Shown here piece after piece: positions 15,211-52,809 of a stretch of DNA of 64,000 bases; the stretch's first letter is position 1, and each line of letters opens with the position of its first letter. A program made the position numbers and the translations under genes. The stretch is taken from the NCBI RefSeq assembly GCF_003002815.1, contig NZ_PVTF01000002.1:868001-932000 (forward strand), written 5' to 3'. Source of the stretch: Umezawaea tangerina (GTDB taxonomy: Bacteria; Actinomycetota; Actinomycetes; Mycobacteriales; Pseudonocardiaceae). Below the pieces are notes generated by a model. It had not been told where the DNA came from, did not search any database, and saw only the letters and a list, made by a program, of their open reading frames with translations.

Positions 15211-15242
15211 GTCTTCGCGCGGGGACTCTCAGACCTCTCTCG
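15211..15242 (-). promoter_or_regulatory. SARP-like heptamer array ahead of the methyltransferase (weaker member)
   Basis: Read on the minus strand, GAGAGAGG and GAGAGTCC start 11 bases apart, and GAAGACT follows 14 bases later. A possible -10 element (GTACGC) lies further down, and the methyltransferase ATG is at 15168. The last spacing breaks the 11-bp period, so this is a weaker match than the arrays at 24.36, 29.54 and 52.72 kb. Confidence 0.35.
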
Positions 15243-16695
15243 ACGCGTACCGCTGCGCGGACTCGCCGCACCAGCGCCGCAGCGCCGCCTCCAGGGCTGG
15301 TCCCGCCTCGTCGCCCGCCCACGCGACGTAGCCGTCGGGGCGCACCAGCACGACACGGGGGCAGCGCCTGGCCAGGGGCTCGGTCAGCTCCACCTCGGCC
15401 ACGCGGTCGGCCCACTCCCCCGCCCCGGCGCCGATCAGCACGAACCGACCGTCCCGGAAGGACTCGAACAGCCGTCCTCGGGTCGTCGGCCGGTCCGGCA
15501 CCCGCCTGCCCTGCCACGGGCCGCCCTCGCCCTTGGGGTAGCGCAGGGTCAGGCCCGCCAGGTGCTCCAGGTTCATCCGCTGCAACGCCTTGACGCGCAC
15601 CAGCTTCATGACCGCCCACCGGATGAGCCGGGCGCCGACGCCGTCGGAGGTCTCGAACCGGAACGACAGGTCGGTCTTGCGCAGCGTCTCCGCCGCGATC
15701 GGGTACCGCTCGGCCTCGTAGCTGTCGAGCAGTCCCGGCGGTGCCCAGCCCTCGATCTCGGCGCGCAGCTTCCAGCCGAGGTTGAACGCGTCCTGGATGC
15801 CCGTCTGCAGGCCTTGGCCGCCCGACGGGATGTGCGTGTGCGCGGCGTCGCCCGCGAGCAGCACCCGGCCGACGCGGTAGCGCTTGGCGTGCCGCTGCGA
15901 GCTGCGGAACCGGGACAGCCACACGGGGTCGTGCGGGTCGACGTCCACCCCCAGGATGGCCGTGCAGCTCTCCCGCAGGTCCTCCAGCGGCAGCGGGAGG
16001 TCGGCGGGCAGCTTCATCTTCTCGTGGTCGAACACGATGACCCGGTAGGTGTCGTCCTGGAACCGGAACACCGCGACCATGCCGCGCTTGGTGATCCGCG
16101 CGTAGTCCGGTGGCGACGGCGGGTTGCGCAGCTTGCAGTCGCCCATGATGACGGAGTCGTCGTAGTTCCAGCCGTCGAAGTCGACACCGATCGCCGCCCG
16201 GATCGTGCTGTTCACGCCGTCGCAGCCGACGAGGTAGTCGGCGCGTTCGGACGTGGTCGTGCCGTCCGGGCCGCAGACGTCGACCTCCACGCCGGTGTCG
16301 TCCTGCCGCAGCGCCAGCACCTCGACGCCGGTGCGGATCACCGCGCCCGCCCGCTGCGCGGCGTCCTGGAGCACGCTCTCGGTGCGGTGCTGCGGGATGA
16401 TGAGGCTGTAGGGGAAGCCGGTGTCCAGCAGGCCGTAGTCCAGGTAGCCGGACTCGTCGCCGACCGGCGGGTGCTGACACGGCCGCCCGTGCTCCAGCAG
16501 CCCTTCCACCCGCCCGCGCATGTCCAGCAGCTCCATGGTCCGCGGCTCCATGGTGAACGCGCGGGACAGCTCCGCGCGCGTGCCGCGCCTCTCCAGGACG
16601 TGGCAGTCGATCCTGGCCTCGGCCAGTTCCGCGGCCAGTGCGAGGCCGGTGGGCCCCGCGCCGACGACGATCACCCGTGGCGACAACGTGATCAC
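15229..16695 (-). CDS. FAD-dependent aromatic hydroxylase (class A, RdmE/PgaE-like)
   Basis: The protein of about 488 residues belongs to the p-hydroxybenzoate hydroxylase fold. It has the GxGxxG FAD motif (VVGAGPTGLALAAEL), the DG motif (GCDGVNSTIR) and the GD motif (LLAGDAAHTHIPSGGQGLQ). The C-terminal region has the thioredoxin-like extension of phenol and polyketide hydroxylases. The GTG at 16695 overlaps the ABC gene stop, but AAGGAG directly abuts it. The in-frame TTG at 16686, nine bases after AAGGAG, would give MSPRVIVVGAG and may be the true start. It ends the PabAB-HpaB-DoxX-ABC operon and probably hydroxylates an aromatic ring of the product, as related enzymes do in saframycin-type pathways. 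Confidence 0.87.
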   Translation of the reverse strand: MITLSPRVIVVGAGPTGLALAAELAEARIDCHVLERRGTRAELSRAFTMEPRTMELLDMRGRVEGLLEHGRPCQHPPVGDESGYLDYGLLDTGFPYSLIIPQHRTESVLQDAAQRAGAVIRTGVEVLALRQDDTGVEVDVCGPDGTTTSERADYLVGCDGVNSTIRAAIGVDFDGWNYDDSVIMGDCKLRNPPSPPDYARITKRGMVAVFRFQDDTYRVIVFDHEKMKLPADLPLPLEDLRESCTAILGVDVDPHDPVWLSRFRSSQRHAKRYRVGRVLLAGDAAHTHIPSGGQGLQTGIQDAFNLGWKLRAEIEGWAPPGLLDSYEAERYPIAAETLRKTDLSFRFETSDGVGARLIRWAVMKLVRVKALQRMNLEHLAGLTLRYPKGEGGPWQGRRVPDRPTTRGRLFESFRDGRFVLIGAGAGEWADRVAEVELTEPLARRCPRVVLVRPDGYVAWAGDEAGPALEAALRRWCGESAQRYASREV

Positions 16696-18491
16696 TCCTT
16701 AGGCAGTGGGGTCTGGGCGGGAGTCCGGTAGTGCATCCGCATGTCCGCGGACGACTCCAGCAGGTCGGCGAGCGGGCCCGCCGCGATCACGCGGCCGTCC
16801 TTGAGCAGCAGCACCTGGTCCGCCCGCTCCAGCACGGCGGGCCGGTGCGAGACCGCGAGGCACGTGGTCGACGTCGCGAAGATGCGCCGCCACAGCTCCT
16901 GCTCGGTCTCGACGTCGAGCGCGCTGGACAGGTCGTCCATCACCAGCAGCGACGGCTCCCGCGCGAACATCCGCGCGGCCGCCGTGCGCTGGACCTGGCC
17001 GCCGGACAGGCGCACCCCGCGCACACCGATCTCCGTCTCCAGCCCGGTGTCGAAGCGCTCCAGGTCCGGACCGAGCACGGCGGTGTGCACGGCGCGTTCC
17101 ACCCGGCCGTCGTCGGGCAGACCGAGCAGGACGTTCTCCCTGATCGAGCCGGAGAGCAGCGTCGGGTTCTGCGGTGTGTAGGCCACCCGCGGCGGCACCA
17201 TGAAGTCGCCGGGGTCCTCGACGCGCTCGCCGTTCCAGCGGATCTCGCCGTGCCCCGCGGCGTACAGGCCCAGCACACCGCGCAGCAGCGTCGTCTTCCC
17301 GGACCCGACCTCGCCGGTCACCACGGTCACCGTGCCCGGTCTGATCGTGAGCGACACGTCCCGCACCCCGCGGTCGGTGCCGGGGAACACGTGCGTCAGC
17401 GACCGGATCTCCAGCTCCCGCAGCGGTTCCACCGCCGGGACGGGGTCGGCGGGTGGCGGTTCGGCCTTGAGGTGCAGCGGGTGGTGGTCGACCAGCGTCA
17501 TCGGCGGCGCGCCCTGGAGCAGCTCGGCCGCGCGCACGAACGACACCCCGGACTGCTGGTAGGTGCGGACCAGGTAGCCCATGAAGTACGTGTACTCGGC
17601 CACCTGCATGAGGTAGGTCGCGAACAGCACGAAGTCGCCGGTGGTGAACTCGCCGGACCTCATCTGCCCCGCGGCCACCAGCAGGACGAGTCCGGCGCCG
17701 AGGCTCGCGGTGCTGTTGAACACCGAGTCGATCGCCAGGCTCTGCACCTTGTCGCGGATCATCGCCGTCTTGCGCACCGCGTTGTCGGCGCGCAGCCGGT
17801 CGACGACCTCGTTCTTCTTGTCCGCGGCCTTGATCGCCCGGACCGCCACGACGATCTCGCCGATCGTCCCGGTGACCTTCGCCGTCGCCTCGCGGCTCTG
17901 CTCGCGGACCCGGTAGGCGCGTGCCCGTGCGAACTGCGCCAGCGCCAGGACGACCGCGAGCGGCACCATGACGATGATCGTGATCTTCACGTCGACGGTG
18001 AGCAGGATCGCCAGCCCGCCGACGGCGAAGATGATGCCCGCCAGCATGTCGAAGCCCCAGCCGCCCATCAGCGCGATGGCGTCGCTGTCGTCGCGGACCG
18101 TCGAGATGCTCTCGCCCACGGTCTTCGGCATCGCCTGCGCGCCCGGCAGCCTGAACACCCGGTCCAGCAGGTTGCGCTGCACGAGCCCGCGCGCCCGCAG
18201 GTACCACCCGGCCCACGCCACCGTGGCCCCGATGATCGCCGTGCACCGCGCGAGCCCGCCCGCCACGATGATCGCGACCACCGTCCACACGGTGACGCCC
18301 ACCGCGGCGCGGCCCTCCAGCACGTCGAACAGCAGCTTGCCCAGCACACCGGGCAGCAGCGGCCACAGGTGGAACACCACCCACCCGGACGCCGCCAGCA
18401 GGTAGCGCCACGGGCTGTAGGTGATCAGCCGCCACAGGAACGCCAGCGTCGGCGGCACGGCCGCCTTCTCCGCGGTGGTCTGCTTGCTCAT
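16692..18491 (-). CDS. ABC exporter half-transporter, degenerate-site subunit
   Basis: The 599-residue protein has an N-terminal six-helix exporter domain and a C-terminal ATPase with Walker A GEVGSGKTT, signature LSGGQ and Walker B LLVMDDLSSALD. The catalytic glutamate after Walker B is aspartate. The partner encoded just upstream has the canonical glutamate but a changed signature (LSAGQ). In heterodimeric exporters the degenerate site pairs exactly these two: Walker B of one chain and signature of the other. The stop-start overlap with both neighbours supports one operon. A role in exporting the cluster product is likely. Confidence 0.9.
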   Translation of the reverse strand: MSKQTTAEKAAVPPTLAFLWRLITYSPWRYLLAASGWVVFHLWPLLPGVLGKLLFDVLEGRAAVGVTVWTVVAIIVAGGLARCTAIIGATVAWAGWYLRARGLVQRNLLDRVFRLPGAQAMPKTVGESISTVRDDSDAIALMGGWGFDMLAGIIFAVGGLAILLTVDVKITIIVMVPLAVVLALAQFARARAYRVREQSREATAKVTGTIGEIVVAVRAIKAADKKNEVVDRLRADNAVRKTAMIRDKVQSLAIDSVFNSTASLGAGLVLLVAAGQMRSGEFTTGDFVLFATYLMQVAEYTYFMGYLVRTYQQSGVSFVRAAELLQGAPPMTLVDHHPLHLKAEPPPADPVPAVEPLRELEIRSLTHVFPGTDRGVRDVSLTIRPGTVTVVTGEVGSGKTTLLRGVLGLYAAGHGEIRWNGERVEDPGDFMVPPRVAYTPQNPTLLSGSIRENVLLGLPDDGRVERAVHTAVLGPDLERFDTGLETEIGVRGVRLSGGQVQRTAAARMFAREPSLLVMDDLSSALDVETEQELWRRIFATSTTCLAVSHRPAVLERADQVLLLKDGRVIAAGPLADLLESSADMRMHYRTPAQTPLPKE

Positions 18492-20706: not shown

Positions 20707-20734
20707 CTCGGTGTCCTCTCGGGTGGTGGCGGTG

Positions 20735-22201
20735 TCACAGCTCGTCGAGGCCGTATCCGTCGAGGCACCGGCGCGCCAGCGCCGCGTACGCGTCGGGGTC
20801 GCCCTCGCGGACGATCGTGGGGAGGTAGACGTGCGGCGACCCGTGGTAGAAGCGCTCGTACTGGTCGTGCCGTCCGGCGAACTCGCTGCCGAGCGCGTCC
20901 CACGCGAGCTTGAGCAGCTTGATCCGCGCCTCGGAGTCGTGGCCCGGCGAGCGGACGTACTTCGCCAGCAGCCCCGCGACCTCGGGGTTGCGCAGGTCGC
21001 GGAAGGAGGACGGGAGCTGGATCAGCCCGCCGCCCGCGAGCAGCTTGATCTCGGCCAGCACCTTCGGGTACAGGTCGGGGCCGACGGCCAGCTGCGCGCA
21101 CGACATCTCGCGGTTGGGCATCACCGCGCCACCGCCGCCGGGCACCGGCTCCGCGCCGTCCTCGATGGCGACCGCGATGGCCTTCGCGGTGTTGAGCCAC
21201 GTCATGAGCTTGCCGATCTGCATCCGCACCGGGGGCAGGTCGTAGGTGTTGTTGGCCTTCGCCACCAGGATCGCCACGCCGGTGAGGAACTCGAGCTTCG
21301 TCCACAGCCGGATGGCGCCGTGGTGCACGAAGCTGACGAAGGCGGGGGTCTTCCAGAACTGGTGGTGGCACTTGTCGGGCTCGCGGTAGGCGAAGACCCG
21401 TTCCCACGGCACGAAGACGTTGTCGAACACCACCAGGGCGTCGTTCTCGTCGAACCGGCTGGACAGCGGGTAGTCGAACACGCTCGTCGCGCGCGCCTCG
21501 TAGGACGTGCGGCTGACGAACTTCACGCCGGGGGTGGCGACCTGGACGGAGAAGCTGAGCGCGTAGTCGGCCTCGGCGGGCGACATCCGCTGGGTGACGC
21601 CCACCAGGATCTCGTCGGCGAACGCGGCCGCGGTGCCGATCATCTTGGCGCCGCGCACCACGATCCCGTCACCGCGTTCGGCCACCACCCGCAGGCACAG
21701 GTCGTCCTCCTCCTGCTCCGACGGCGGCTTGGTGCGGTCGATCTGGGGGTTGACCAGGGTGTGCGCCTGGTAGAGGTCGTTCTCGGCCATCCGCCGCCAG
21801 TGCGCGACGACGTTGGCCGACCCGTCGAACTCGCCGCCCGCGAAGACGTCCGGCACGGTGGCGAACCCGGCGACGGCGGAGGCCATGTAGTCGGGCGAGC
21901 GGCCGAAGAAGCCGAACGTCGCCTCGGACCACACCTTGAACGCCCTGCCCTTGGCCCGCAGCTCCTCCTTGGAGGTCGGGATCTGGTGCGCCCGCAGCAT
22001 CTTCTCGGTCGACCCCGGCAGCGGCGCGGTGAGCACGTCCTCGTACCGCTCGTCGTGGGTGAGGTCGTAGAGGCCCGCGATCGAGCCGAGCGACCGCCGG
22101 AACGCGGGGTGCGTGGTCACGTCGTCGACCTGCTCGCCGTCCAGCCAGATCACCCGGCCGTCCCGCAGGGATTCGAGGTACTCCTTGCCGGTGCGCGTCA
22201 T
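20735..22201 (-). CDS. HpaB-type FADH2-dependent aromatic hydroxylase
   Basis: The 488-residue protein matches the large component of 4-hydroxyphenylacetate 3-monooxygenase over its whole length. It has the N-terminal RTGKEYLESLRDGR start, the QAHTLVNPQIDR region, the VVRGAKMIGTAAAFADEILVG flavin-site segment and the C-terminal GHDSEARIKLLKLAWD helix. It starts at ATG 22201, overlapping PabAB (ATGA). Enzymes of this type need reduced flavin from a separate reductase, and an HpaC-like reductase gene lies at 49.8 kb. Coupling to PabAB suggests hydroxylation of an aminated aromatic such as p-aminobenzoate or p-aminophenylalanine, but a tyrosine derivative is also possible. Confidence 0.9.
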   Translation of the reverse strand: MTRTGKEYLESLRDGRVIWLDGEQVDDVTTHPAFRRSLGSIAGLYDLTHDERYEDVLTAPLPGSTEKMLRAHQIPTSKEELRAKGRAFKVWSEATFGFFGRSPDYMASAVAGFATVPDVFAGGEFDGSANVVAHWRRMAENDLYQAHTLVNPQIDRTKPPSEQEEDDLCLRVVAERGDGIVVRGAKMIGTAAAFADEILVGVTQRMSPAEADYALSFSVQVATPGVKFVSRTSYEARATSVFDYPLSSRFDENDALVVFDNVFVPWERVFAYREPDKCHHQFWKTPAFVSFVHHGAIRLWTKLEFLTGVAILVAKANNTYDLPPVRMQIGKLMTWLNTAKAIAVAIEDGAEPVPGGGGAVMPNREMSCAQLAVGPDLYPKVLAEIKLLAGGGLIQLPSSFRDLRNPEVAGLLAKYVRSPGHDSEARIKLLKLAWDALGSEFAGRHDQYERFYHGSPHVYLPTIVREGDPDAYAALARRCLDGYGLDEL

Positions 22202-24282
22202 CGCGGTGTCTCCATGAGGTGTGGTTGGGGGGCCACCCGGCCGAGGTCCACACCGAGTCCGCGCATCGGGGCGCGCGCCTTCAGCAGCATCTCGTCGAAC
22301 TCGTCGGCCGGGTCGGAGTCGAGCACGATGGCGCCACCGGCGCCGATGAGCAGGCTCTTCCCCTCGGCGACGGCCGTGCGGATGACGATGTTCAGGTCGG
22401 CGGTCCCGTTGCGGCCCAGGAAGCCGATGGAGCCGGAGAAGATGCCGCGCGGGGTGCTCTCCAGCTGGTCGAGGATCTCCATCGTGCGCAGCTTCGGCGC
22501 CCCGGTCATCGAGCCGCCGGGGAAGCACGCCCGCACGCAGGCGATCGTGTCGACGTCCTCGCGCAGCGTGCCGCGCACGGTGGACACCAGCTGGTGCACC
22601 GTCGCGTAGCTCTCCACCGCCATGTACCTCGGCACGTGCACCGAGCCGATCTCGCACACCCGGCCGAGGTCGTTGCGCAGCAGGTCGACGATCATCAGGT
22701 TCTCGGCGCGGACCTTGGGGTCCTCGGTGAGGCTCGCGCGCAGCCGTTCGTCGGACACCGGGTCGGTGCCGCGGGCGGCGGTCCCCTTGATGGGCTTGGA
22801 CTCCACGGTCCGGTCGCCGGTGACCCGCAGGAACCGCTCGGGCGAGGAGCACAGCACGGAGATGCCGCCCAGGCGCAGGAAGGCGGCCTGCGGTGCGGGG
22901 TTCGTGCGGCGCTGCACCAGGTACAGCGCCAACGGGTCCATGTCCAGCGGCAGCGTCGTGCGGGTGGTCAGGCAGATCTCGTAGCTCTCGCCGGCGTGCA
23001 GCTGCCGTTGGCACGCCTCGACGTTGTCCAGGTACTCCTGGCGGTGCCGCAGCAGACCGGGACCGGGGTCGTAGCCGAGGCCCAGCGGTGTCCGGGGCTC
23101 CGGCAGCGGGGCCAGGTCGGCGAGCCTGCGCTCGGCGTCGTCGAGCCACTCGGCGGCCGACGGGTCGTCGCCGGTGCGGCTCAAGGCGATCAGGTGGGTG
23201 CGGTGCAGCTCGTGGTCCACGACGACGAGTCGGGTGGTGGACATCCACACGGCGTCCGGGGTGGCCGCCCGGTGCCGGTTCGGCGAGCCCAGCTCGCCCT
23301 TGAGCTCGTAGCCGAAGTAGCCGACGTACCCGGAGGCGAGGTCGAACGGCAGGTCCGGCACGCCGTCCACGGGCTCCGCGAGCCGGGCGCGCAGCGCGTC
23401 GAACACCGACTCGCCGCCGTCGTCCACCCGGTAGGTCAGCACCTCGCCGTGCGGTCCCTCCGGCGCGCCGAGGAAGGAGAACCGCGACAGGCCGGGCTCG
23501 ATCCTGCTGCTGTCCAACCAGAACGCGTGGTCCAGGTCGGCGAACAGCTCGGTGAACGCCGCCGCCGTGTCGACCTGGCGGCCGATCTCGCGGTGCCGCA
23601 GGCGCCAGGGCGCGGGTTCCGGCGCGACAGGCGCGACCGGGACGGTTCGGGGGGTCGGCAGGACGAGGGGCGCGCCGAGCGCCTTCCCCTGCTCCGCCAA
23701 CGTCTTCGCGGCGACCCGGCCGAAGTTCTCGATCAGCGCGGCGCCGTGCTCGGAGGCGATGGACTCGGGGTGGAACTGCACGCCCCACATCGGCCGGTCG
23801 CGGTGCCGCAGCCCCATCAGGACGCCGTCCTCGGCCCACGCCGTGGGCTCCAGCGACGGGGGCAGGTCCCGCGCGGGCACGCACAGGGAGTGGTAGCGCA
23901 CCGCCACGAAGTCCTGCGGCAGCCCGTCGAACAGCCCCGCGCCGTTGTGCCGCACCCGCGTGAGGTGCCCGTGCCGCGGCTGGGGGGCACCGACCACGTC
24001 GGCACCGGCGAGCAGCGCGATGGCCTGGTGGCCGAGGCACACGCCCAGCAGCGGGACGTTCGTGTGCCGCAGCAGCTCCCGCACCGCGCCGAGGTCGCGC
24101 TCGCGGCCGGGGTGGCCGGGGCCGGGCGACACGACGACCGCGTCGAAGTCGTCGACCGCGAGCGTGGCCCACCGCTCGTCGTCGTTGGTCACCACCACCG
24201 GAGGCGTGCCGTAAACCCCGGCCATCAACTGGAAGAGGTTGTAGGTGTACGAATCGTGGTTGTCGATGAGCAGCGTGCGCAT
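22198..24282 (-). CDS. pabAB: Aminodeoxychorismate synthase, PabA-PabB fusion
   Basis: The 694-residue fusion has a class I glutamine amidotransferase domain (residues about 1-195, with VCLGHQ nucleophile and QFHPES His/Glu) and a chorismate-binding domain (about 235-690). The chorismate active-site motif reads PIKGT, the lysine form of PabB, rather than the PIAGT of anthranilate synthase. The product should be 4-amino-4-deoxychorismate. Secondary-metabolism fusions of this order supply p-aminobenzoate or p-aminophenylalanine. No PabC lyase or PapB/PapC gene is seen in the window, so the downstream enzyme is off-window or housekeeping. It heads the operon with HpaB. Confidence 0.93.
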   Translation of the reverse strand: MRTLLIDNHDSYTYNLFQLMAGVYGTPPVVVTNDDERWATLAVDDFDAVVVSPGPGHPGRERDLGAVRELLRHTNVPLLGVCLGHQAIALLAGADVVGAPQPRHGHLTRVRHNGAGLFDGLPQDFVAVRYHSLCVPARDLPPSLEPTAWAEDGVLMGLRHRDRPMWGVQFHPESIASEHGAALIENFGRVAAKTLAEQGKALGAPLVLPTPRTVPVAPVAPEPAPWRLRHREIGRQVDTAAAFTELFADLDHAFWLDSSRIEPGLSRFSFLGAPEGPHGEVLTYRVDDGGESVFDALRARLAEPVDGVPDLPFDLASGYVGYFGYELKGELGSPNRHRAATPDAVWMSTTRLVVVDHELHRTHLIALSRTGDDPSAAEWLDDAERRLADLAPLPEPRTPLGLGYDPGPGLLRHRQEYLDNVEACQRQLHAGESYEICLTTRTTLPLDMDPLALYLVQRRTNPAPQAAFLRLGGISVLCSSPERFLRVTGDRTVESKPIKGTAARGTDPVSDERLRASLTEDPKVRAENLMIVDLLRNDLGRVCEIGSVHVPRYMAVESYATVHQLVSTVRGTLREDVDTIACVRACFPGGSMTGAPKLRTMEILDQLESTPRGIFSGSIGFLGRNGTADLNIVIRTAVAEGKSLLIGAGGAIVLDSDPADEFDEMLLKARAPMRGLGVDLGRVAPQPHLMETPR

Positions 24283-24472
24283 ACAACCCCCATTTCAGCC
24301 TGGTTATCGGCGTGCCACCTCGGGCAGTAAATTGGAGGTGCGCACACGGGAACAAGACCGCAAGACCGACGTGAGAGCCGCGCAAGACCCTTTCGAATGC
24401 GCGAGATTACTGAAGTGATATCGGACGGCGCTAGCTTTCGGTTCGCCAGATGTCGAGCAACCGGAGAGTCCC
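24283..24472. promoter_or_regulatory. Divergent regulatory region with SARP-like heptamer array
   Basis: This 190-base gap separates the leftward PabAB operon from the rightward SatP-like gene. It contains CAAGACC at 24361, TGAGAGC at 24372 and CAAGACC at 24383, exactly 11 bases apart, plus another CAAGACC at 24353. An AT-richer segment (24400-24420) follows. The array is the clearest member of the set described for this window, and it may serve either or both directions. No start codon or small gene is supported here. Confidence 0.6.
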
Positions 24473-25162
24473 ATGACCACAACGGCAATCCCGTCCCAGA
24501 CCACGAACGGGCACGCGGTCGACACCGCGCCCGCTCCCGCCCCGACCGAGGTGCCGACCTCCCTCAGCGCGAGCCCCGCGCTGCTGGGCTTCCCGGCCTT
24601 CGCGATCGCGGCGCTGTCGCTCGCGCTGTTCCTCACCGGCTTCAACCAGACCACGATCCCCAGCACGCTCGCCGCGCCGCTGCCGATCATGATCATCGCG
24701 AGCGGCCTGCTGTTCGCCTCCGCAGCGTGGGCGATCCGCCGCAACGAAGGTGTCATGGCCTCGATGTTCGGCCTGTTCGGCACCTTCTGGCTGAGCTTCT
24801 CCGTGCTGGTCCTCGGCCTGCTGAACAACTGGTTCGGCAAGCTCCCCGAGCCCGCCCAGCGGGGTGCGCAGGCCAACTTCCTGCTGCTGTGGTTCGTCAC
24901 GATGGTCGTCATGACCTTCGCGACGCTGCGCCTGCAGAAGGTCTACACGCTGCTGTTCGTGCTCATCGACTTCTCGCTGATCACGCTGTTCGCCGCGGTC
25001 AGCATCGCCCGTCCGGGCGCGGGCGGCGACCCGTTCATCCTGCACCCCGGTGTCGTGGCGCTCTTCGTCATGCCGGTCGTCGGCATGTACCTCTTCGCGA
25101 GCGCCGTGAACTCCGCTCTGGGCGGCAAGCCCTTCCCCATGGGAAAGCCGTTCAAGCGCTGA
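24473..25162 (+). CDS. Acetate/succinate transporter-like membrane protein (GPR1/FUN34/YaaH)
   Basis: The 229-residue protein starts at ATG 24473 after CCGGAGAG. After a Pro/Ala/Thr-rich N-terminus come six hydrophobic segments, with the SPALLGFPAFAIAALSLAL first helix in the place of the family NPAPLGL motif, and later GLFGTFWLSFSVLVLG and LLFVLIDFSLITLFAA. It resembles SatP-type monocarboxylate channels. A SARP-like array lies about 85 bases upstream. It may supply a C2 acid or dispose of an acid by-product, but this is only inferred. Confidence 0.78.
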   Translation: MTTTAIPSQTTNGHAVDTAPAPAPTEVPTSLSASPALLGFPAFAIAALSLALFLTGFNQTTIPSTLAAPLPIMIIASGLLFASAAWAIRRNEGVMASMFGLFGTFWLSFSVLVLGLLNNWFGKLPEPAQRGAQANFLLLWFVTMVVMTFATLRLQKVYTLLFVLIDFSLITLFAAVSIARPGAGGDPFILHPGVVALFVMPVVGMYLFASAVNSALGGKPFPMGKPFKR

Positions 25163-25220
25163 CCCATCGGGAAGCGAACAGGTCTGAGAAAAAGCTGAAC
25201 CGGTGGTCTCGCTTGATCTC

Positions 25221-25249
25221 GGCGGCGGAGTGGAATGAATTCCGCCGCC
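25221..25249. terminator. Hairpin between SatP-like and oxidase genes
   Basis: GGCGGCGGA at 25221-25229 pairs with TCCGCCGCC at 25241-25249 around an 11-base AT-rich loop. It lies 58 bases after the SatP-like stop and 65 bases before the oxidase start. It could be a partial terminator or a leader hairpin. The remainder of this 152-base gap has no other recognisable element. Confidence 0.5.
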
Positions 25250-25314
25250 GGGGTCGAGGGGATCGCATTTCGGCGCACATCGATCCACGGCACCACGTGA
25301 TCCAGAGGTGAGAA

Positions 25315-26913: not shown

Positions 26914-27021
26914 CCCGGTGACCGCCGCACCCGGTCCGGCGAAGCCGGATGCCTGGTCGGCGAAGCCGATGCCGGCGTAGCCAGTCCCCACCCTGCACCC
27001 CGATCCGAAGCCATCTCTGGG

Positions 27022-27072: not shown

Positions 27073-27143
27073 GCTAGAACACTCGGCGAGCGGGGTGGAG
27101 GCGTCCTGAACCCAGCCACGAGGAGTCCCCAGAAGGAGCCGCC

Positions 27144-29535: not shown

Positions 29536-29576
29536 CGAAGACCGGCTCAAGCGCGACTTGAGAGGTCCCCGATACG
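29536..29576 (+). promoter_or_regulatory. SARP-like array and -10 box ahead of the SDR
   Basis: CGAAGACC (29536), TCAAGCGC (29547) and TTGAGAGG (29558) are spaced exactly 11 bases apart. GATACG (29571-29576) follows as a -10 candidate. The SDR ATG at 29585 is only about 9 bases beyond that box and has no Shine-Dalgarno sequence, so the mRNA may be leaderless. Confidence 0.6.
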
Positions 29577-29584
29577 GTCGGGCG

Positions 29585-30500: not shown

Positions 30501-30529
30501 GGAGACCGGGCTGAGAGGCCCCCGCGCTA
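30501..30529 (+). promoter_or_regulatory. SARP-like array ahead of the PLP-like/mutase genes
   Basis: GGAGACC (30501) and TGAGAGG (30512) are 11 bases apart, and CGCTAC (30525-30530) follows as a possible -10. The GTG start at 30540 lies immediately downstream without a clear ribosome-binding site. Again this suggests a leaderless or short-leader transcript. Confidence 0.5.
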
Positions 30530-30539
30530 CTTTCGGCTG

Positions 30540-32944: not shown

Positions 32945-33411
32945 CAGCACTTCAGGGCCGCAAGGCGATCGTCGCCAAGCTCGGCATGGACGCCCACTGG
33001 CGCGGCGCCATCGTCGTCGCCAACGCCCTGCGCGACGCGGGCATGGACGTCGTCTACCTCGGCCACACCCTCGCCGCCGACCTCGTCGCCGCCGTGGAGC
33101 AGGAGGACCCGGTGCTCGTGGGGCTGTCCACGTTGTCCGGCAACCACCTGGCCGAGTGCGACCAGGTCATGACCGCCTTCCGCGCCGCCGGGCTCGACGA
33201 CGTGGTCGTCGTCGCGGGCGGCACGATCCCGCCGCGCGACCAGGTGGAGCTGGTGGCGCTGGGGGTGGACCAGGTGTTCGGCGTCGGGAGCCCGCTGGCC
33301 CACATCGTGGAGCAGGTCTCGGCCCTGGTCACCGCCCGGCAGCACCTTCGGGTCCCGGCGGAGGCTCCAGAGCCTCACTCAGCACGATCGGTTGTACTGG
33401 ACTATCTCTAG
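32923..33411 (+). CDS. Cobalamin-binding small subunit of the acyl-CoA mutase
   Basis: The protein of up to 162 residues has the base-off cobalamin motif DAHWRG (DxHxxG), then GLSTLSGNH (SxL) and AGGTIPP (GG). It overlaps the large-subunit gene: the first in-frame ATG is 32923, and GTG 32938 with GGGAG at 32925-32929 may be the real start. The core ends near residue 145. The last residues up to the stop at 33411 lie in AT-richer DNA and look like antisense of the neighbouring NACHT gene, so the native C-terminus may have been replaced. Confidence 0.9.
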   Translation: MGVPAVVAALQGRKAIVAKLGMDAHWRGAIVVANALRDAGMDVVYLGHTLAADLVAAVEQEDPVLVGLSTLSGNHLAECDQVMTAFRAAGLDDVVVVAGGTIPPRDQVELVALGVDQVFGVGSPLAHIVEQVSALVTARQHLRVPAEAPEPHSARSVVLDYL

Positions 33412-36400
33412 TCGCGATTTCCACAGGTATCACACTGCCCCGGCCACTACTATGAATTTGATCTTCGTTCAGCACCGTAATGACATACCCAAGTTCACCC
33501 ACCGGCCCATTATCAGCAACCTTAGGCGCCGGACAATCTTCAAGCAAGTCAGGATACTTCTCCAGAAGTTTCGGGTGCATGACCACTAGTTCGCGAAGTA
33601 CCTGCAACCCAAAACGCGCTTTCGGAACACTCCCCAACCCCCATCCAATTATGAGGTCAATTGCCTCGTAAGGTAAACGCGATCCCCGATCTTTCAGTAC
33701 TCTACCAATAATCTCTACCGCCCTGTTCCAGGTTTGAGATTCTTCGACTTCATCAGGAAGTACGAGGTTTACCATACGTCCAGGGATCGATGAGTCAAGT
33801 GCACCACTAATTAGAAGATCAACATTCTCCTTTGGGCCATCAAATCGAGCCCAAGTAAGAATAGAGTCGTTCACGGCGAAGCCATATCTAAGTCGACGCA
33901 CCAAATCAATGTCACCAGTCAACCGAGCATGACTAACATCCGCTACAACCGCCTCATGGATATCCTCAAGTCCTAACAAGATCAAGTCGACGTGTCGGCC
34001 GAGCGAGCTCACCAGATCCTGCCAGCTCGCACCATCGAGTCCTGCCCTCCACAACTCGACCATCGAACGCCACTGAACTTGGTTGTCGTCGCTGGACCAG
34101 AGTTGATCGAGGGGCATCCCATCAGGCGCGAACACGAGTCGCAACAGAACCAGGTTGGCCGAGTAAGCAGCCAATTCACGCACATGGTCGGTAGGCAATG
34201 GGCGGTAGTCAGCGAACCTGTCCGATCGATTACGCTTCCGGTGTTGTGGTAGCAACTCCCGAAGCATCCGAATGATGGAGTCCTGTTGCGCCTGCGGAAG
34301 CGCTCCTACCAACTCCTGCAAAAAGGTGAGGACTGTTCGCCGGTTGCTCAGAGGCTGGTGCGACATGGCAGCGAACATGAGGTCGTCATGGTTTCGGTCG
34401 CGGCGCCTACCACCGGACGGCAACTGCTGGATGACCACGCCGAGCAGGTGCCTCGCGACGAGATACTCGCCGAACGTGGCGTGCAGGAACTCGTAGCTCT
34501 TCTCACTCAACCGCTGCACGTGTTCGTTGGTCTCAGCCAAGTGGACGAAAAAAAACTGACCAATAGTCCACTTCGAGGCAGTGGCTTCGCGGCTGTCCCC
34601 CTCGGCGAACGCCCTCGCATCCTGCTCGAGCTCAACCTCGGTGATGTCGTGACGCCCCCGGTTGAACATACCCAGTGCCACGATGCCCAGCCGCCACATC
34701 TGGTCCTCGACCGCTTCCTCGAAGTCCTCCTCGCTGCGGTTTCCGAATGGGCGGGTGACCTCACGGCGGGCGAAGGACTCCAGCAGATGCCCGTAAAGAG
34801 CGGCCTTCGACAAGTCGGCGTCCAGGCTCACCGAGTTCGGATCCGCCGAATGGAGGGCCAGCATGAACAACAAGAGCGGCTGCTCGACCAGGTCAGGGTG
34901 GGTCATCGCGGTCTCGACGTCCAGTGGTCGGAAAGTACCCGCTCGAGCACCTGCCCGGTTGACCTCGTTCCAGATGTCGAGCCACGCTGCAACCTCGGTC
35001 TCGTCGAACTCCTCCAACCGCACCACCGGTGAGCGCTCGGGAATGGTGACCCGGTCCGCCACGACCGTGCGCGAGGTGACGATCACGACAACGGGCCGGT
35101 CCATCCCCGCTTCTCGACGCTGGAAGTCGACGACCTCCTGGAGGTAACCCATGCGCCGGTTCGAGGACGCTTGGAGCAGTTCATCAAGGCCGTCGAGCAG
35201 GACTACCCGGACCGTGCTCTTGCTCTGCTCGACCAGCGTCGGCCAAGTCACCCGACCGTGGGTGGTCGCGCTCAGCGCTTGTTCGACCTGGTCGTAGACC
35301 GGGGCATCGACATCCACACGGCGCAAGGGCACTCGGACAACCGTGTACTCGGAGACCGGTAAGCGCGCGGCGAGGACCTTCATCAGCATCGATTTACCCG
35401 CACCAGGATGGCCGAGCAGGAGAAGTGGCCACTCTGCGCCGTCGGCTGATGTGAGGTGCGTGGCGAGAAGCATATCCAGGTCGTCGCGGACCGAACGGTC
35501 ACGCCACCACTTCTCGTCCCACGGTTTCACCTCGGGCATCTCCCCACCTGAAATCCGGTAACGGGGGTTTACGTAGATCTGGCCAACGGTCGGGAACTCG
35601 GCACCATCACGATGGCCAGGCCGGGAATCGGGCACGATCGAGAGGTTGAGCACGGAAGTGTTGGCTTGGTGGATGGTCACGCGACTGTCCGGTAAGACTG
35701 ACTGGACAGCTGGTGGATCCAGGGACAGCAGGCGTTCGATCCGGATCAGGGCAGCGCCGTGATGGTCGAGTGCGGCGGCGAGAGCGTGGCGGGTGTCGCA
35801 CACTTCGGCACGGGTCGCCGCATGTTCTCCGAACGAAGCCCACATCAGGAACTCCGGCACGTCGGACGCCATCCGAAGGTAATGCTCGCGGTACTTGACG
35901 GTGGCGGTCTTCACAACCTCTTCGAAGTCCACACCACCGTGCCACGCTGCAAGCAACTCCAAGTACGAGACCACTCTGTCCGCAAGTTCGACCAGCCATC
36001 CCTGGACAACGACGACGTTCTCCTCGAACCCCCGAGTCGCCGACGGGGCAGGAACGTCGACGGCGTAGAGCTTGTCCACCAGCTTCTCGCCCTGCCCTCG
36101 ATCCCAGCCGGACGCCATCCCGACCTGCTCATCAGTCGTGAGCGCCAGAGCGTCGAAAACAGCATTGCCCAACCGTTCCCGTAGCGACTCGAAGAACGAT
36201 GTCACCACGAGCACTGTGTGCGCGGCCGCGACCAGCTTCCGACGCTCGTAACCCGCGGTCTTGAGGCGACGTTGGGAGACAGCCCGGAGGGTGTCCTGGA
36301 TCAGCGTGAATGCCTGGTTCTTCTGGTCGACAGCGCCCCACACCGCTGCGGCCACTCCGGCCGGACCGAAGAGGGCGACAGCGGGAGCTGCGAGAATGAC

Positions 36401-36499
36401 CCCGCCCAGCGCGCGGTCGACCGCCTTGAGCCACGAAGGGTCGTCACTGCCGAGGATCCGCAACGCGCCGCGGTAAGTCAGAGGGTGGTCCTTGGGCAT
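33329..36499 (-). CDS. Large NACHT-type NTPase, probable defence protein
   Basis: The 1056-residue protein has an N-terminal helical region (about 1-300, starting LTYRGALRILGSDDPSW). It is followed by a NACHT-type STAND ATPase with Walker A GHPGAGKS (Lys369) and Walker B RVVLLDGLDELL (about 430-442), then a long C-terminal helical part. The Walker B acidic cluster DGLDE is the NACHT form. Bacterial NACHT proteins of this size are known anti-phage NLR-like sensors, and no separate effector gene is visible. The gene is clearly AT-richer than its surroundings, uses codons rare here and contains an in-frame TTA (codon 842, 33974-33976), a bldA-type codon. Its 3' end overlaps the mutase small-subunit gene. 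Start at ATG 36499. Confidence 0.88.
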   Translation of the reverse strand: MPKDHPLTYRGALRILGSDDPSWLKAVDRALGGVILAAPAVALFGPAGVAAAVWGAVDQKNQAFTLIQDTLRAVSQRRLKTAGYERRKLVAAAHTVLVVTSFFESLRERLGNAVFDALALTTDEQVGMASGWDRGQGEKLVDKLYAVDVPAPSATRGFEENVVVVQGWLVELADRVVSYLELLAAWHGGVDFEEVVKTATVKYREHYLRMASDVPEFLMWASFGEHAATRAEVCDTRHALAAALDHHGAALIRIERLLSLDPPAVQSVLPDSRVTIHQANTSVLNLSIVPDSRPGHRDGAEFPTVGQIYVNPRYRISGGEMPEVKPWDEKWWRDRSVRDDLDMLLATHLTSADGAEWPLLLLGHPGAGKSMLMKVLAARLPVSEYTVVRVPLRRVDVDAPVYDQVEQALSATTHGRVTWPTLVEQSKSTVRVVLLDGLDELLQASSNRRMGYLQEVVDFQRREAGMDRPVVVIVTSRTVVADRVTIPERSPVVRLEEFDETEVAAWLDIWNEVNRAGARAGTFRPLDVETAMTHPDLVEQPLLLFMLALHSADPNSVSLDADLSKAALYGHLLESFARREVTRPFGNRSEEDFEEAVEDQMWRLGIVALGMFNRGRHDITEVELEQDARAFAEGDSREATASKWTIGQFFFVHLAETNEHVQRLSEKSYEFLHATFGEYLVARHLLGVVIQQLPSGGRRRDRNHDDLMFAAMSHQPLSNRRTVLTFLQELVGALPQAQQDSIIRMLRELLPQHRKRNRSDRFADYRPLPTDHVRELAAYSANLVLLRLVFAPDGMPLDQLWSSDDNQVQWRSMVELWRAGLDGASWQDLVSSLGRHVDLILLGLEDIHEAVVADVSHARLTGDIDLVRRLRYGFAVNDSILTWARFDGPKENVDLLISGALDSSIPGRMVNLVLPDEVEESQTWNRAVEIIGRVLKDRGSRLPYEAIDLIIGWGLGSVPKARFGLQVLRELVVMHPKLLEKYPDLLEDCPAPKVADNGPVGELGYVITVLNEDQIHSSGRGSVIPVEIATRDSPVQPIVLSEALEPPPGPEGAAGR

Positions 36500-36623: not shown

Positions 36624-38896
<2,273 letters not shown>

Positions 38897-40068: not shown

Positions 40069-40081
40069 GTCCGGTGTCCCT

Positions 40082-41689
40082 TCACTGTCCCGAGCGCTCG
40101 TTGACCAGCCCCGACCCGACGATGCCCGCCGACGCTCGAAGAGCGCTCGGGAACGACTCGCCCAGCCCGTCCCGCGCGGCGAGGTGGCCGTCGGGGCGGA
40201 CCAGCCACCACCCCGTGCCGTAGACCTCCAGCGCGTCGTCCACGGCGGTGGCGACGGTGATCTCCGGGCTCAGCCCGTCGGCCGACGCGCCCGGCGGCAG
40301 GACCGCCACTAGCCGCGCGGGGACGTCCCACGGCCTGGCCCACGCGGCCTCCGCGACGTCCGCGGCCTCACTGGCGTCGGAGGCGAAGACCAGGCCGACG
40401 AACCCGGCGCCGAGCAGCGTGCGCAACCGGGTCTGCCGGCCGTCGACGACGACCGGCCCGTCCGGGGCGAACGCGCCCAGCAGCGGGTGGCCGGTCCGCA
40501 CCAGCGGCGAGTCGGTGTAGGTGTACGGCTCCGCCATCCGGCCGCTGTTCACGTGCTTGCGGGCCGGCCCCAGCGTCCGCGACAGCCGCAGCAGCACCGC
40601 CCGCGTCCACCGGCGGAGCCTGTTGGGCGGCACCATGAACCGGATCGTGGCCTCGGTGACCCGCAGGTTCTCCAGCGCGGCGGCGTACCGCTCGCGGTGG
40701 TAGGTCTCCAGCAGCTCCTCGCCGACCACCCCGGAGCGGACCAGCGCGATCTTCCACGCGAGGTTGTCGGCGTCCTGGATGCCGCTGTTCATGCCGCGCG
40801 AACCGTAGGGCGGCAGCGCGTGCGCGGCGTCGCCCGCGAACAGCACCCGCCCCACCCGCAGCCGGTCGACGACCCGCTGGTGGAACCGGTAGGTGCTGAC
40901 CCAGTCGACCTCGTACGGGACGTCGCCGATCACCGCGCGGACCCGCTGGTCGAACCGGCCGTCGGCGCGCTCGGCCTCGATGTCGGCGTCGGGCGGCAGC
41001 TGCCAGTCGATCCGCCAGATGTCGTCGGGCTGCGGGTGCATCACGAGCTGCCGGCCGGGGTTGAACACCGGGTCGTAGTGGAAGTGCCGCTCCTTGGCCA
41101 GCGGCAGCTCGGCCTTGATGTCGGTGATCAGGAACCGGTCCTGGTGGGTGTACCCGGTCCACTCCACGCCGACCAGGTCGCGCAGTCCACTCCGGACACC
41201 GTCGCAGGCGACCAGGTGCGTGAAGACCAGGTCCTCCTCCCCCAGTTCGGTGACGACCCTGGCGGTGACCGAGTCCGCGTCCTGCGCCAGGCCGGTGACC
41301 CGGTGCCCCCAGCGCAGGTCGCAAAGCGGCTCGGCCTCGACCGCCTCGGCGAGCACCTGCTCGATGCGGTGCTGGGAGATGTTGACGAACGGCCCGAACC
41401 CCTGGCCGCGCGGGTACTCCGCGGCCCGGATCTCCTGGTTGCGCACGTAGGTCCGGGCGACCGTCCACGTCACGCCCTCCTCGGCGATGGTCCGCGCGCA
41501 CCCGACCTTGTCCAGCACCTCCAGGACGTCGCCCTGGATCAGGCACGCCTTCGAGCCCTGCTTCACCAGGTGGGGGTCGGACTCCAGCAGCACGCTCGGC
41601 ACGCCGAGCCCGGCCAGCCGCAGCGCGGTGATCAGACCCACGGGTCCGGCGCCGACGATCCCCACCGGCGCGTCCAATCGGGTGGTCAC
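40082..41689 (-). CDS. FAD-dependent aromatic hydroxylase (MhpA/PCP-monooxygenase-like)
   Basis: The 535-residue class A flavoprotein starts at GTG 41689, overlapping the PrnB-like stop. FAD motifs are GIVGAGPVGLITALRL, ACDGVRSGLR (DG) and VLFAGDAAHALPPYGSRGMNSG (GD). A thioredoxin-like C-terminal domain (about 400-535) is present as in phenol and 3-(3-hydroxyphenyl)propionate hydroxylases. In this operon it probably hydroxylates kynurenine, anthranilate or a derived aromatic. It is not closely like classic kynurenine 3-monooxygenase, which lacks the thioredoxin-like tail and has C-terminal hydrophobic helices. Confidence 0.86.
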   Translation of the reverse strand: MTTRLDAPVGIVGAGPVGLITALRLAGLGVPSVLLESDPHLVKQGSKACLIQGDVLEVLDKVGCARTIAEEGVTWTVARTYVRNQEIRAAEYPRGQGFGPFVNISQHRIEQVLAEAVEAEPLCDLRWGHRVTGLAQDADSVTARVVTELGEEDLVFTHLVACDGVRSGLRDLVGVEWTGYTHQDRFLITDIKAELPLAKERHFHYDPVFNPGRQLVMHPQPDDIWRIDWQLPPDADIEAERADGRFDQRVRAVIGDVPYEVDWVSTYRFHQRVVDRLRVGRVLFAGDAAHALPPYGSRGMNSGIQDADNLAWKIALVRSGVVGEELLETYHRERYAAALENLRVTEATIRFMVPPNRLRRWTRAVLLRLSRTLGPARKHVNSGRMAEPYTYTDSPLVRTGHPLLGAFAPDGPVVVDGRQTRLRTLLGAGFVGLVFASDASEAADVAEAAWARPWDVPARLVAVLPPGASADGLSPEITVATAVDDALEVYGTGWWLVRPDGHLAARDGLGESFPSALRASAGIVGSGLVNERSGQ

Positions 41690-42939: not shown

Positions 42940-42943
42940 GGCG

Positions 42944-44805: not shown

Positions 44806-44870
44806 GTGGCGAACCCCTACTGTCGCGCCGCCTGGTGGACGATCACGTCAGCGACGCTACGGAGCGGTCC

Positions 44871-44898
44871 TATCATCCGGGTCTTCGCCCGGCTCTCA
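44871..44898 (-). promoter_or_regulatory. SARP-like array and -10 box for the TDO operon
   Basis: On the minus strand TGAGAGC (from 44898) and CGAAGACC (from 44887) are 11 bases apart, followed by ATGATA (44876-44871) as a -10 candidate. The TDO ATG is at 44805. The gap 44806-44973 also serves the divergent phosphodiesterase gene, for which no array is seen. Confidence 0.55.
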
Positions 44899-44973
44899 TC
44901 CGATTGCCCGCTCCTGGTGCGCGCCACAGGATGGCGGCATCCCCGCCATCCGAGCGCACGCCAGGAGAAGCCC

Positions 44974-46059: not shown

Positions 46060-46085
46060 TGACCGGGCAAGACCCGGTTGATACG
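46057..46085 (+). promoter_or_regulatory. SARP-like repeat pair ahead of the hydrolase-ABC gene
   Basis: TGATGACC (46057) and GCAAGACC (46067) repeat at 10-base spacing, and GATACG (46080-46085) follows as a -10 box. The array overlaps the stop of the phosphodiesterase gene, and the GTG start at 46108 lies 22 bases on. Spacing is one base short of the usual 11, so this is a weaker member. Confidence 0.4.
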
Positions 46086-46107
46086 GGCCGCGCCTAGCGT
46101 CGCAGGC

Positions 46108-49745: not shown

Positions 49746-49752
49746 CCGGCTC

Positions 49753-49789
49753 CCGCCGGGTGTCCCGCACCGCTCAGGACACCCGGCGG
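49753..49789. terminator. Bidirectional terminator hairpin
   Basis: CCGCCGGGTGTCC (49753-49765) pairs with GGACACCCGGCGG (49777-49789) around an 11-base loop. It lies between the rightward permease and the leftward flavin reductase and includes the reductase stop codon. Confidence 0.78.
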
Positions 49790-50295
49790 ATCGCCTGGGC
49801 GGGGCCGCGGTGGTGCCACACCAGACCGCCGCCGTCACCGTTCTCGGGGCTGACGACCTCCACCACCCGACCGAGCAGGATCGTGTGGTCACCGCCGTCG
49901 CGGACCCCGTCCGGTGTGCAGGTGATCCGCACCCGGACATCGGTCAACTCGGGGACGGCGCCGTGCCGCACGTTCTGCCCGGAGAACCGGTCGACCGGCG
50001 AGGCGAATCGCACGGCGAGCTCCTGCTGACCCGGTTCCAGGACGTGCAGACAAATGCGTTCCGAGTCCACGACCATGTCGTGGCTGAAATTGGTCCGGTT
50101 CAGGCAGACCAGCACGAGCGGCGGCGACATCGACACCGAGCAGACCGCGTTGACGGTCAGCCCGATCAGTTCACCATCTGGCCCGTAGCAGGTCAGGACC
50201 GTCAGAGGGGCGGGCAGCTGGGCCATCGCCCGGCGGAACGTCGCCACGTCGACAGAAGGCTGGTCATCCTGCGAAACAACGATTGTAGGCTCCAC
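49774..50295 (-). CDS. HpaC-like flavin reductase
   Basis: The protein of about 173 residues belongs to the flavin reductase-like split-barrel family: RRAMAQLPAPLTVLTCYGPDG, LTVNAVCSVSMSPPLVLVCLN and the end ILLGRVVEVVSPENG. Such proteins make free FADH2/FMNH2 for two-component oxygenases. The only HpaB-type enzyme here is at 20.7-22.2 kb, so the two are natural partners despite 28 kb between them. Start is uncertain: GTG 50295 is used here, and an in-frame TTG at 50328 would add 11 residues. It is divergent from the GNAT gene. Confidence 0.87.
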   Translation of the reverse strand: MEPTIVVSQDDQPSVDVATFRRAMAQLPAPLTVLTCYGPDGELIGLTVNAVCSVSMSPPLVLVCLNRTNFSHDMVVDSERICLHVLEPGQQELAVRFASPVDRFSGQNVRHGAVPELTDVRVRITCTPDGVRDGGDHTILLGRVVEVVSPENGDGGGLVWHHRGPAQAIRRVS

Positions 50296-50364
50296 GCCCC
50301 CACGGTAAAGGGGCTCCCTATCACGCAACTCTCAACAATCGCGCGGAATACGCCGGAAATCACG

Positions 50365-50396
50365 TGAGACCGACCTGAGACCGGCGCTGAATACGT
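50365..50396 (+). promoter_or_regulatory. SARP-like array and -10 box ahead of the first GNAT gene
   Basis: TGAGACC at 50365 and again at 50376 are exactly 11 bases apart. GAATACG (50389-50395) follows as a -10 box, and GGGAGG (50404-50409) precedes the ATG at 50419. This is the tidiest two-copy example in the window. Confidence 0.62.
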
Positions 50397-50418
50397 TTCG
50401 CCCAGGGAGGTATGCGGC

Positions 50419-52718: not shown

Positions 52719-52720
52719 GG

Positions 52721-52756
52721 CGAGAGGAGGCGGAGAGGTCGCTGAGACCGGCTGCC
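52721..52756 (+). promoter_or_regulatory. SARP-like triple array ahead of the AspH-type hydroxylase
   Basis: CGAGAGG (52721), GGAGAGG (52732) and TGAGACC (52743) are spaced exactly 11 bases apart. The region CCAACACAG (52754-52762) could hold a weak -10, and CAGGAG (52767-52772) is seen further down. It directly follows the MFS stop at 52718, giving the hydroxylase and second GNAT genes their own promoter. Confidence 0.58.
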
Positions 52757-52809
52757 AACACAGTGGCAGGAGAAGCGGAAACCGAGGAGAACCCGGAGAT
52801 GCCAACACC

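What the first reader, a model, noticed from the sequence alone, without database searches (positions are those of the whole stretch)
15211..52762. A shared array of 11-bp-spaced heptamers precedes at least six and perhaps eight transcription units
Heptamers of the form (T/C/G)(G/A)AGA(C/G)(C/G) recur at one-helical-turn spacing at 24361/24372/24383, 29536/29547/29558, 30501/30512, 44898/44887 (minus), 50365/50376 and 52721/52732/52743. Weaker versions lie at 46057/46067 and 15242/15231. Most are followed by a -10-like box (GATACG, GAATACG, ATGATA). Tandem heptamers at 11 bp upstream of -10 boxes are how SARP activators bind DNA. The sites link the methyltransferase set, SatP, SDR, mutase, TDO operon, hydrolase-ABC and FemAB/GNAT genes into one regulon, although no SARP gene is in the window.
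Basis: partly seen in the sequence, partly recalled or inferred. Interest (0 to 1): 0.75.

Follow-up and report, generated by a model that had tools for sequence, protein, structure and literature searches.

The report
Shared activator sites in biosynthetic cluster
Evenly spaced short DNA repeats in front of about a dozen genes of one probable antibiotic gene cluster are very likely the docking sites of a single activator protein encoded in the same cluster; it is a textbook type of switch, but here the sites and their likely owner can be read from sequence in several bacteria.

Summary
The repeats are real. A pattern for this layout, written after seeing the sites, has 8 exact matches in the 10.68 Mb genome, all within 84 kb of one biosynthetic cluster; the reversed control has none. 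The likely activator lies 26 kb left of the window: a 706-aa SARP-NB-ARC protein whose own operon carries a site. The cluster core resembles dnacin B1/naphthyridinomycin clusters. Of eight clusters encoding this SARP, all eight have the site before the NRPS genes and six have it close before the SARP operon. Against orthologous promoters, heptamers and -10 are 79-84% identical, spacers 49-54%, partly because sites were picked by score. The two nearby small SARPs have no counterpart in the stretches compared. Weak points: the SDR promoter has a 7-nt gap, the trypsin site stands alone, three leftward units lack a site, binding was not measured. Verdict: a cluster-specific SARP regulon, a new member of a known kind.

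The parts
15210..15242 (-). Site before the methyltransferase operon: CGAGAGA N4 TGAGAGT N9 AAGACT
   Evidence: counterparts in Lentzea and G383; G059 also has a site before its methyltransferase
24361..24437 (+). Phased array before SatP and the berberine-bridge-type oxidase: heptamers at 24361, 24372, 24383, weak at 24394 and 24405, proximal TGATATC at 24416, N9, TAGCTT 24432-24437
   Evidence: the Lentzea ortholog keeps the array in register
29537..29578 (+). Non-standard site before the NapW-like SDR: GAAGACC, CAAGCGC, TGAGAGG, gap 7, TACGGT; contains CTCAAG-N5-CTTGAG (29546-29562)
   Evidence: Lentzea keeps CTCAAG-N5-CTTGAGAG and TACGGT but not the first heptamer
30501..30533 (+). Site before the aminotransferase/B12-protein operon: GGAGACC N4 TGAGAGG N9 TACTTT, GTG 6 nt on
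   Evidence: counterparts in Lentzea, two Microbispora species and G383
44854..44886 (-). Site before the TDO operon: GAAGACC N4 TGATAGG N9 TAGCGT
   Evidence: counterparts in Lentzea, two Microbispora species and G383
46068..46100 (+). Site before the hydrolase-ABC gene: CAAGACC N4 TGATACG N9 TAGCGT, GTG 7 nt on
   Evidence: counterparts in Lentzea, two Microbispora species and G383
50302..50334 (-). Site before the flavin reductase: TGAGAGT N4 TGATAGG N9 TACCGT, GTG 6 nt on; divergent from the next site
   Evidence: counterparts in Lentzea, two Microbispora species and G383
50365..50397 (+). Site before the FemAB/GNAT operon: TGAGACC N4 TGAGACC N9 TACGTT
   Evidence: counterparts in Lentzea, two Microbispora species and G383
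52721..52764 (+). Phased array before the Asp/Asn-hydroxylase-like gene: 52721, 52732, 52743, N9, CACAGT
   Evidence: weaker counterparts in two Microbispora species and G383, none found in Lentzea
55745..55777 (-). Site before a trypsin-like gene: TGAGACC N4 CAAGAGC N9 CACCGT; tentative
   Evidence: the trypsin-like protein has no hit over 80 bits in the compared stretches

Best explanation
The repeats are the operator-promoters of one cluster-specific regulon run by the SARP-NB-ARC protein at C2:840049-842169. Its OmpR-type domain would bind the two heptamers, one protein per 11-bp turn, where a -35 box would be, and bring the main RNA polymerase to the poor TANNNT box 9 nt downstream, as AfsR does at afsS. 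Its own operon carries a site, so it would also activate itself. Shown here: the layout, confinement to the cluster in this genome, conservation in other clusters with the same SARP, a near-invariant recognition helix, position ahead of genes. Inferred: binding, activation, which protein binds, and the signal read by the NB-ARC part.
For: Own genome: 8 exact matches, all in an 84 kb stretch, control 0. A profile from the 8 window sites finds, besides those 8, one other place: the SARP operon, weakly (E 2.35; 150 of 2154 first-look candidates were scored). Orthologous clusters: 6 of 9 exact matches (Lentzea), 4 of 5 and 3 of 4 (two Microbispora species) lie in the cluster; binomial 1.6e-9, 3.8e-8, 4.0e-6. 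Eight clusters with this SARP: site before the NRPS genes in 8 of 8; close before the SARP operon in 6 of 8, and in a seventh (G032) 0.5 kb ahead of the SARP gene. Against orthologs, heptamers 79% and 84% and -10 82% identical, spacers 54% and 49%, flanks 40% and 43% (28 comparisons). Recognition helix QIQTCVW.LR in 8 of 8 of these SARPs and not in the two small SARPs. AfsR binds two 11-bp repeats at -40 to -19 (PMC10936776, passages), which puts repeat to -10 within 1 nt of the layout here. Four sites with gap 9, and the SDR site, have an in-frame start codon 6-7 nt after the -10.
Against: No binding or transcript data. The scan matrix and the pattern were made from these sites, and 38 of the 40 aligned sites were picked by that scan, so both the consensus and the identity figures are partly built in. 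The SDR promoter breaks the 9-nt rule; the trypsin site has no counterpart in the compared stretches; the Asp-hydroxylase site is missing in Lentzea; G473 (SARP 46% identical) shows no good site before its SARP gene. Leftward units starting at unk865, PabAB and NAT have no gap-9 site, and unk865 has a TTGAC box instead. AfsR residues Q48, R87, S91 and K95, which touch DNA there, differ here. The extra hit is not significant alone. One-mismatch totals in the other genomes are only moderately above the reversed control (63/48, 79/54, 74/47).
Confidence: 0.88

Rival explanations
1. The sites belong to a SARP, but to another one: one of the two small SARPs at C2:829045 and 836509, or one of the other BTAD proteins of the genome.
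For: The genome has 63 BTAD matches and two small SARPs lie 31-39 kb left of the window.
Against: In the stretches compared, the best hit of either small SARP per contig is a 34-37% hit on the SARP-NB-ARC gene itself (only the best hit was printed). Their recognition helices differ. Of 30 BTAD loci scanned (30 of the 63, about 3.4 kb each), one holds a site over the threshold: the SARP-NB-ARC one.
Confidence: 0.06
2. An OmpR/PhoP-type response regulator binds the repeats; such regulators can use direct repeats of the same kind.
For: PhoP and AfsR recognise overlapping sequence in the afsS promoter (PMC10972967, passage).
Against: The two response regulators found beside the cluster are LuxR/GerE-type, and a global regulator would be expected to have sites elsewhere in the genome; the pattern has none there. 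The genome's OmpR-type regulators were not listed.
Confidence: 0.03
3. The heptamers are simply a -35 element of a special sigma factor, with no separate activator.
For: Fixed distance to the -10 box at nearly all sites listed.
Against: An array of up to six phased heptamers kept in register in Lentzea is not a -35 box; the -10 is of the ordinary TANNNT type; the sites go with a conserved SARP gene from cluster to cluster.
Confidence: 0.02
4. Chance similarity in G+C-rich DNA.
For: Loose two-mismatch matches are as common as for the reversed control.
Against: Exact matches: 8 of 8 in the cluster, control 0; three other genomes show the same concentration.
Confidence: 0.01

Closest known systems
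AfsR (SARP-NB-ARC-TPR) acting at the afsS promoter, Streptomyces coelicolor
   Same: SARP domain followed by an NB-ARC/NOD domain; two 11-bp direct repeats over the -35 region; poor -10 box; AfsR residues W74, P79, T88, R92 and R94 are kept in the alignment
   Different: Heptamer TGAGAGC-like instead of CGTT(T/C)ATCGNN; AfsR Q48, R87, S91 and K95 are not kept; the protein is 706 aa and its alignment stops at residue 616 of the 993-residue AfsR chain, so no AfsR-like TPR part is seen; a cluster regulator, not a global one
DinR3 (dnacin B1 cluster, Actinosynnema) and NapR3 (naphthyridinomycin cluster, Streptomyces lusitanus)
   Same: DinR3 is listed as a 707-aa regulatory protein, in the text as SARP family, 55% identical to NapR3, in a cluster with similar core genes (PMC7570522, passages with parts of Table 1)
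   Different: No operator is described in the passages read; here the sites also cover kynurenine-type, LysX/ArgBC-type and FemAB genes.
ActII-ORF4 / DnrI-type cluster SARPs
   Same: Heptamer repeats before cluster genes, two or three per promoter (PMC10972967, passages)
   Different: Small SARPs without NB-ARC and a TCGAG-like heptamer (both recalled, from no call)

Membership tests
SARP activator (protein) | OmpR-type DNA-binding domain followed by BTAD | tested here: met
   Trans_reg_C 5.7e-10 and BTAD 5.2e-38
SARP activator (protein) | Encoded in the cluster it regulates | tested here: met
   Beside the NRPS genes here and in 7 other clusters
SARP operator-promoter | Tandem heptamers repeating every 11 bp | tested here: met
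   Spacing 11 stands out among 8-15; partly built in, as the matrix came from such sites
SARP operator-promoter | Repeats over the -35 region at a fixed short distance from a -10 box | tested here: met
   Gap 9 stands out among 3-17; the SDR promoter is an exception with 7
SARP operator-promoter | Bound by the SARP and needed for activation | not testable with these tools
   needs the bench
AfsR-type large SARP | NB-ARC/NOD domain with Walker A | tested here: met
   NB-ARC 6.1e-11; GRGGVGKS in the alignment
AfsR-type large SARP | C-terminal TPR domain | tested here: not met
   No TPR hit in Pfam at 1e-5; alignment to AfsR ends at query residue 603 of 706
Dnacin/naphthyridinomycin-type tetrahydroisoquinoline cluster | Core genes: KSIII, two-part transketolase-like enzyme, Fe hydroxylase, NRPS set, FAD monooxygenase, methyltransferase, FAD oxidase, NapW-like SDR | tested here: met
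   Pfam; sizes against Table 1 passages of PMC7570522; SDR to NapW 7bsx/7btm, E 3e-142. Not every din or nap gene was sought.
Dnacin/naphthyridinomycin-type tetrahydroisoquinoline cluster | Makes such a compound | not testable with these tools
   product unknown

The most novel reading that the evidence does not exclude
A single DinR3/NapR3-type SARP group has a heptamer code of its own (TGAGAGC-like, not AfsR's) that is kept across at least eight clusters in three actinobacterial families, and the promoters of a whole added sub-cluster (kynurenine-type, LysX/ArgBC, FemAB genes) have acquired this operator, so that a hybrid tetrahydroisoquinoline pathway is switched on as one unit.
Probability: 0.6. 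Interest if true: 0.5.

Novelty: new member of a known kind. Interest (0 to 1): 0.42.

Why it matters
It gives a readable operator code for one SARP group, names the probable master switch of an uncharacterised hybrid cluster, and predicts which genes are switched on with the pathway. The same pattern could help mark the limits of related clusters in other genomes.

Tried and rejected
Reading GATACG (46080) and ATGATA as -10 boxes: rejected, because in phase with the array they belong to the second heptamer and TANNNT stands 9 nt further on. G066 as a source of orthologous promoters: TDO1, TDO2, the u908 frame and the cyclase align at 58-82%, the rest only at 25-36%, and no site scores above 12 in 160 kb. 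Viral contigs with TDO1: nothing. Literature for the compound: the useful hit was the dnacin paper. My early labels 'HpaB' (22198-24282), 'u892' (24397-25311) and 'u908' (40368-41546) were wrong or in the wrong frame; searches show PabAB-type synthase (22198-24282), HpaB-type (20735 to about 22201), SatP-type (24473-25162) and an FAD monooxygenase; the ortholog tables carry the old labels. Pattern with 2 mismatches: background-like. No tree and no structure prediction was run.
Full report
WHERE IT IS. The window is G000:C2:868001-932000 of a 10.68 Mb genome in 34 contigs. Window coordinate w is contig coordinate w + 868000.

OBSERVATION. The pair 44898/44887 is really 12 bp apart; the in-phase pair there is 44886 GAAGACC and 44875 TGATAGG. 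The 29536 set lies one base to the right and its middle member is CAAGCGC.

THE CORRECTED SITE. Heptamer, 4 nt, heptamer, 9 nt, TANNNT. Over 40 sites in 12 promoter groups of four genomes, the letters found in 40 of 40 are A at heptamer-1 position 5, A at heptamer-2 positions 3 and 5, A at -10 position 2 and T at -10 position 6. Of the 40, 38 come from a scan that favours those letters (all but the two SatP-array sites), so this invariance is partly selected. The SatP array runs in phase from 24361 to a proximal TGATATC at 24416, then 9 nt and TAGCTT; Lentzea keeps the array in register. In-frame start codons follow the -10 by 6-7 nt at the chorismate mutase gene, 30540, 46108, 50295 and, with gap 7, 29585, which would fit leaderless messages.

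PARTS OUTSIDE THE WINDOW (contig C2). Site 839605-839637 (+), GGAGAGC N4 TGAGAGT N9 TACTTT, before the chorismate-mutase-like gene 839644-839937 (+; NCBIfam CM-like 1.6e-13, below its cut-off) and the SARP-NB-ARC gene 840049-842169 (+). Site 850455-850423 (-), TGATACC N4 CGAGAGA N9 TACCGT, before the DegT aminotransferase gene. Site 866414-866446 (+), TGAGAAC N4 CGAGAGG N9 TACATT, with further in-phase heptamers upstream, before the NRPS genes.

GENOME-WIDE TEST. The pattern RAGASN6RAKASN10YANNNT has 8 exact matches in the whole genome, 7 in the window and 1 (C2:839606) outside it, all within 84 kb; the backwards control has 0. It was written after seeing the sites, so its message is the absence elsewhere. 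A profile of the 8 window sites finds those 8 and one more place, C2:839604, at E 2.35; that is not significant alone, and 150 of 2154 first-look candidates were scored, but it lies at the SARP operon. A stricter pattern has 3 exact matches, all in the cluster, and 11 of its 15 matches with 0-1 mismatch are there; with 2 mismatches allowed the total of 151 is not above the control's 190. Two congeners, about 11 Mb each, whose best matches to TDO1 and to the SARP are weak, have 2 and 0 exact matches.

THE REGULATOR. The genome has 63 BTAD matches. Left of the window lie two small SARPs (C2:829045 and 836509; the second with LuxR-type response regulator and histidine kinase genes beside it) and a 706-aa SARP-NB-ARC (C2:840049-842169) behind a chorismate-mutase-like gene. 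It aligns with AfsR (E 6.5e-97); by position it keeps AfsR W74, P79, T88, R92 and R94 but not Q48, R87, S91 and K95; the alignment stops before AfsR's C-terminal part. G195 has the same contig position as the Lentzea locus (C7:325934-327976), so I take it to be the same genome as G100; Lentzea is in Pseudonocardiaceae.

OTHER CLUSTERS. A scan of genome contigs with the B12-domain protein gave 10 loci, among them Lentzea sp. NBRC 105346, Microbispora triticiradicis and M. amethystogenes. Of their genomes' exact matches, 6 of 9, 4 of 5 and 3 of 4 lie in the orthologous cluster (binomial 1.6e-9, 3.8e-8, 4.0e-6); with one mismatch the totals are only moderately above the control (63/48, 79/54, 74/47). 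In all three the SARP-NB-ARC is conserved (78, 68, 68%) next to the chorismate mutase gene, whereas the best hits of the small SARPs there are 36-37% hits on that same gene. Sites precede the same genes: chorismate mutase-SARP, DegT, NRPS, mutase operon, TDO, hydrolase-ABC, flavin reductase and FemAB in all three; methyltransferase and SatP in Lentzea (those genes are not on the Microbispora stretches fetched); a weaker one before the Asp-hydroxylase in Microbispora, none found in Lentzea. Identity to the window's genome over 28 comparisons is 79% and 84% in the heptamers and 82% in the -10, against 54% and 49% in the spacers and 40% and 43% in the flanks; sites were picked by score, which favours the heptamers and the -10. 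Further clusters: G059, dnacin-like (sites before CM-SARP, NRPS, an ABC-transporter region, E1 and MT) and G032 (before NRPS; one 0.5 kb ahead of the SARP gene with no chorismate mutase hit); G383 (the Microbispora set, a methyltransferase site, weak SatP and one unexplained weak hit) and G473 (before NRPS and E1; none good before its SARP, 46% identical). G238, in the genus of G383, has the contig position of the M. amethystogenes gene, so G383 is probably a Microbispora (Streptosporangiaceae); G473 is in a third family. So the NRPS genes have the site in 8 of 8 clusters, own included; the SARP operon has it close by in 6 of 8. Stretches without a hit to this SARP: G605, 80 kb, no site at 14 or more; G066, 160 kb, none above 12. 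The recognition helix QIQTCVW.LR is found in 8 of 8 of these proteins and not in the two small SARPs.

THE CLUSTER. Its core resembles the dnacin B1 table (PMC7570522, passages with parts of Table 1): KSIII 336 aa in both, methyltransferase 244 in both, SARP 707 there and 706 here, FAD oxidase 534 and 532, aminodeoxychorismate synthase 706 and 694, NRPS 1482 and 1474. The SDR's best solved relative is NapW (7bsx/7btm, E 3e-142), the self-resistance reductase of naphthyridinomycin (PMC8648761, passages including the abstract). Added here: TDO/monooxygenase/cyclase, NAT, FemAB, B12 protein, LysX/ArgBC-like genes. The product is not known to me.

MECHANISM. By analogy with AfsR, whose two protomers sit on 11-bp repeats from -40 to -19 and engage sigma region 4 (PMC10936776, passages), the SARP would occupy the heptamers in place of a -35 box. 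Heptamer to -10 here is 16 nt; repeat to -10 at afsS is 17 nt as I compute it, taking the -10 at -12 to -7. Binding and activation are inferred.

EXCEPTIONS. The SDR promoter keeps CTCAAG-N5-CTTGAGAG and TACGGT in Lentzea with a gap of 7. The leftward NRPS unit (unk865) has a TTGAC box in each of the four genomes, so its promoter may be of the ordinary type. PabAB and NAT have no gap-9 site. The trypsin-like gene at 55777 has no hit over 80 bits in the compared stretches.

NOVELTY. Cluster SARPs with heptamer repeats are textbook (PMC10972967, passages). For this SARP group I found no described operator: search lists NapR3 and DinR3 only for PMC7570522 among the 12 papers shown of 58. Hence a new member of a known kind.

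Noticed in passing
window 29546-29562 (+) and Lentzea G100:C16 near 15050: Conserved palindrome CTCAAG-N5-CTTGAG in the NAT/SDR intergenic region; may be a site for another regulator of the SDR.
   Followed up: partly
window 24280-24340: Between PabAB and SatP, CCAATTTACTGCC and AAATGGGGGTTGTATG (read on the minus strand) are conserved in Lentzea; perhaps the PabAB promoter and start.
   Followed up: partly
window 33332-36499 (-): NACHT-type protein with an NNH7 N-terminal domain (Pfam 4.8e-63) between the mutase and TDO operons; no hit over 80 bits in the compared stretches.
   Followed up: no
window 36627-38885 (-): ABC-ATPase-like protein with weak SMC similarity, possibly UvrA-like as the dnacin cluster has one; not confirmed.
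   Followed up: no
window 56192-60019: Two divergent HTH-NB-ARC proteins side by side (788 and 439 aa).
   Followed up: no
contig C2:828423-839376 (left of the window): Two small SARPs (one beside a YcaO gene, the other beside LuxR-type response regulator and histidine kinase genes), without a counterpart in the orthologous stretches.
   Followed up: partly
L152 (G101:C272 24980-25050) and G102:C64 near 35560: The Microbispora DegT promoter holds two heptamer pairs 33 bp (three turns) apart.
   Followed up: no
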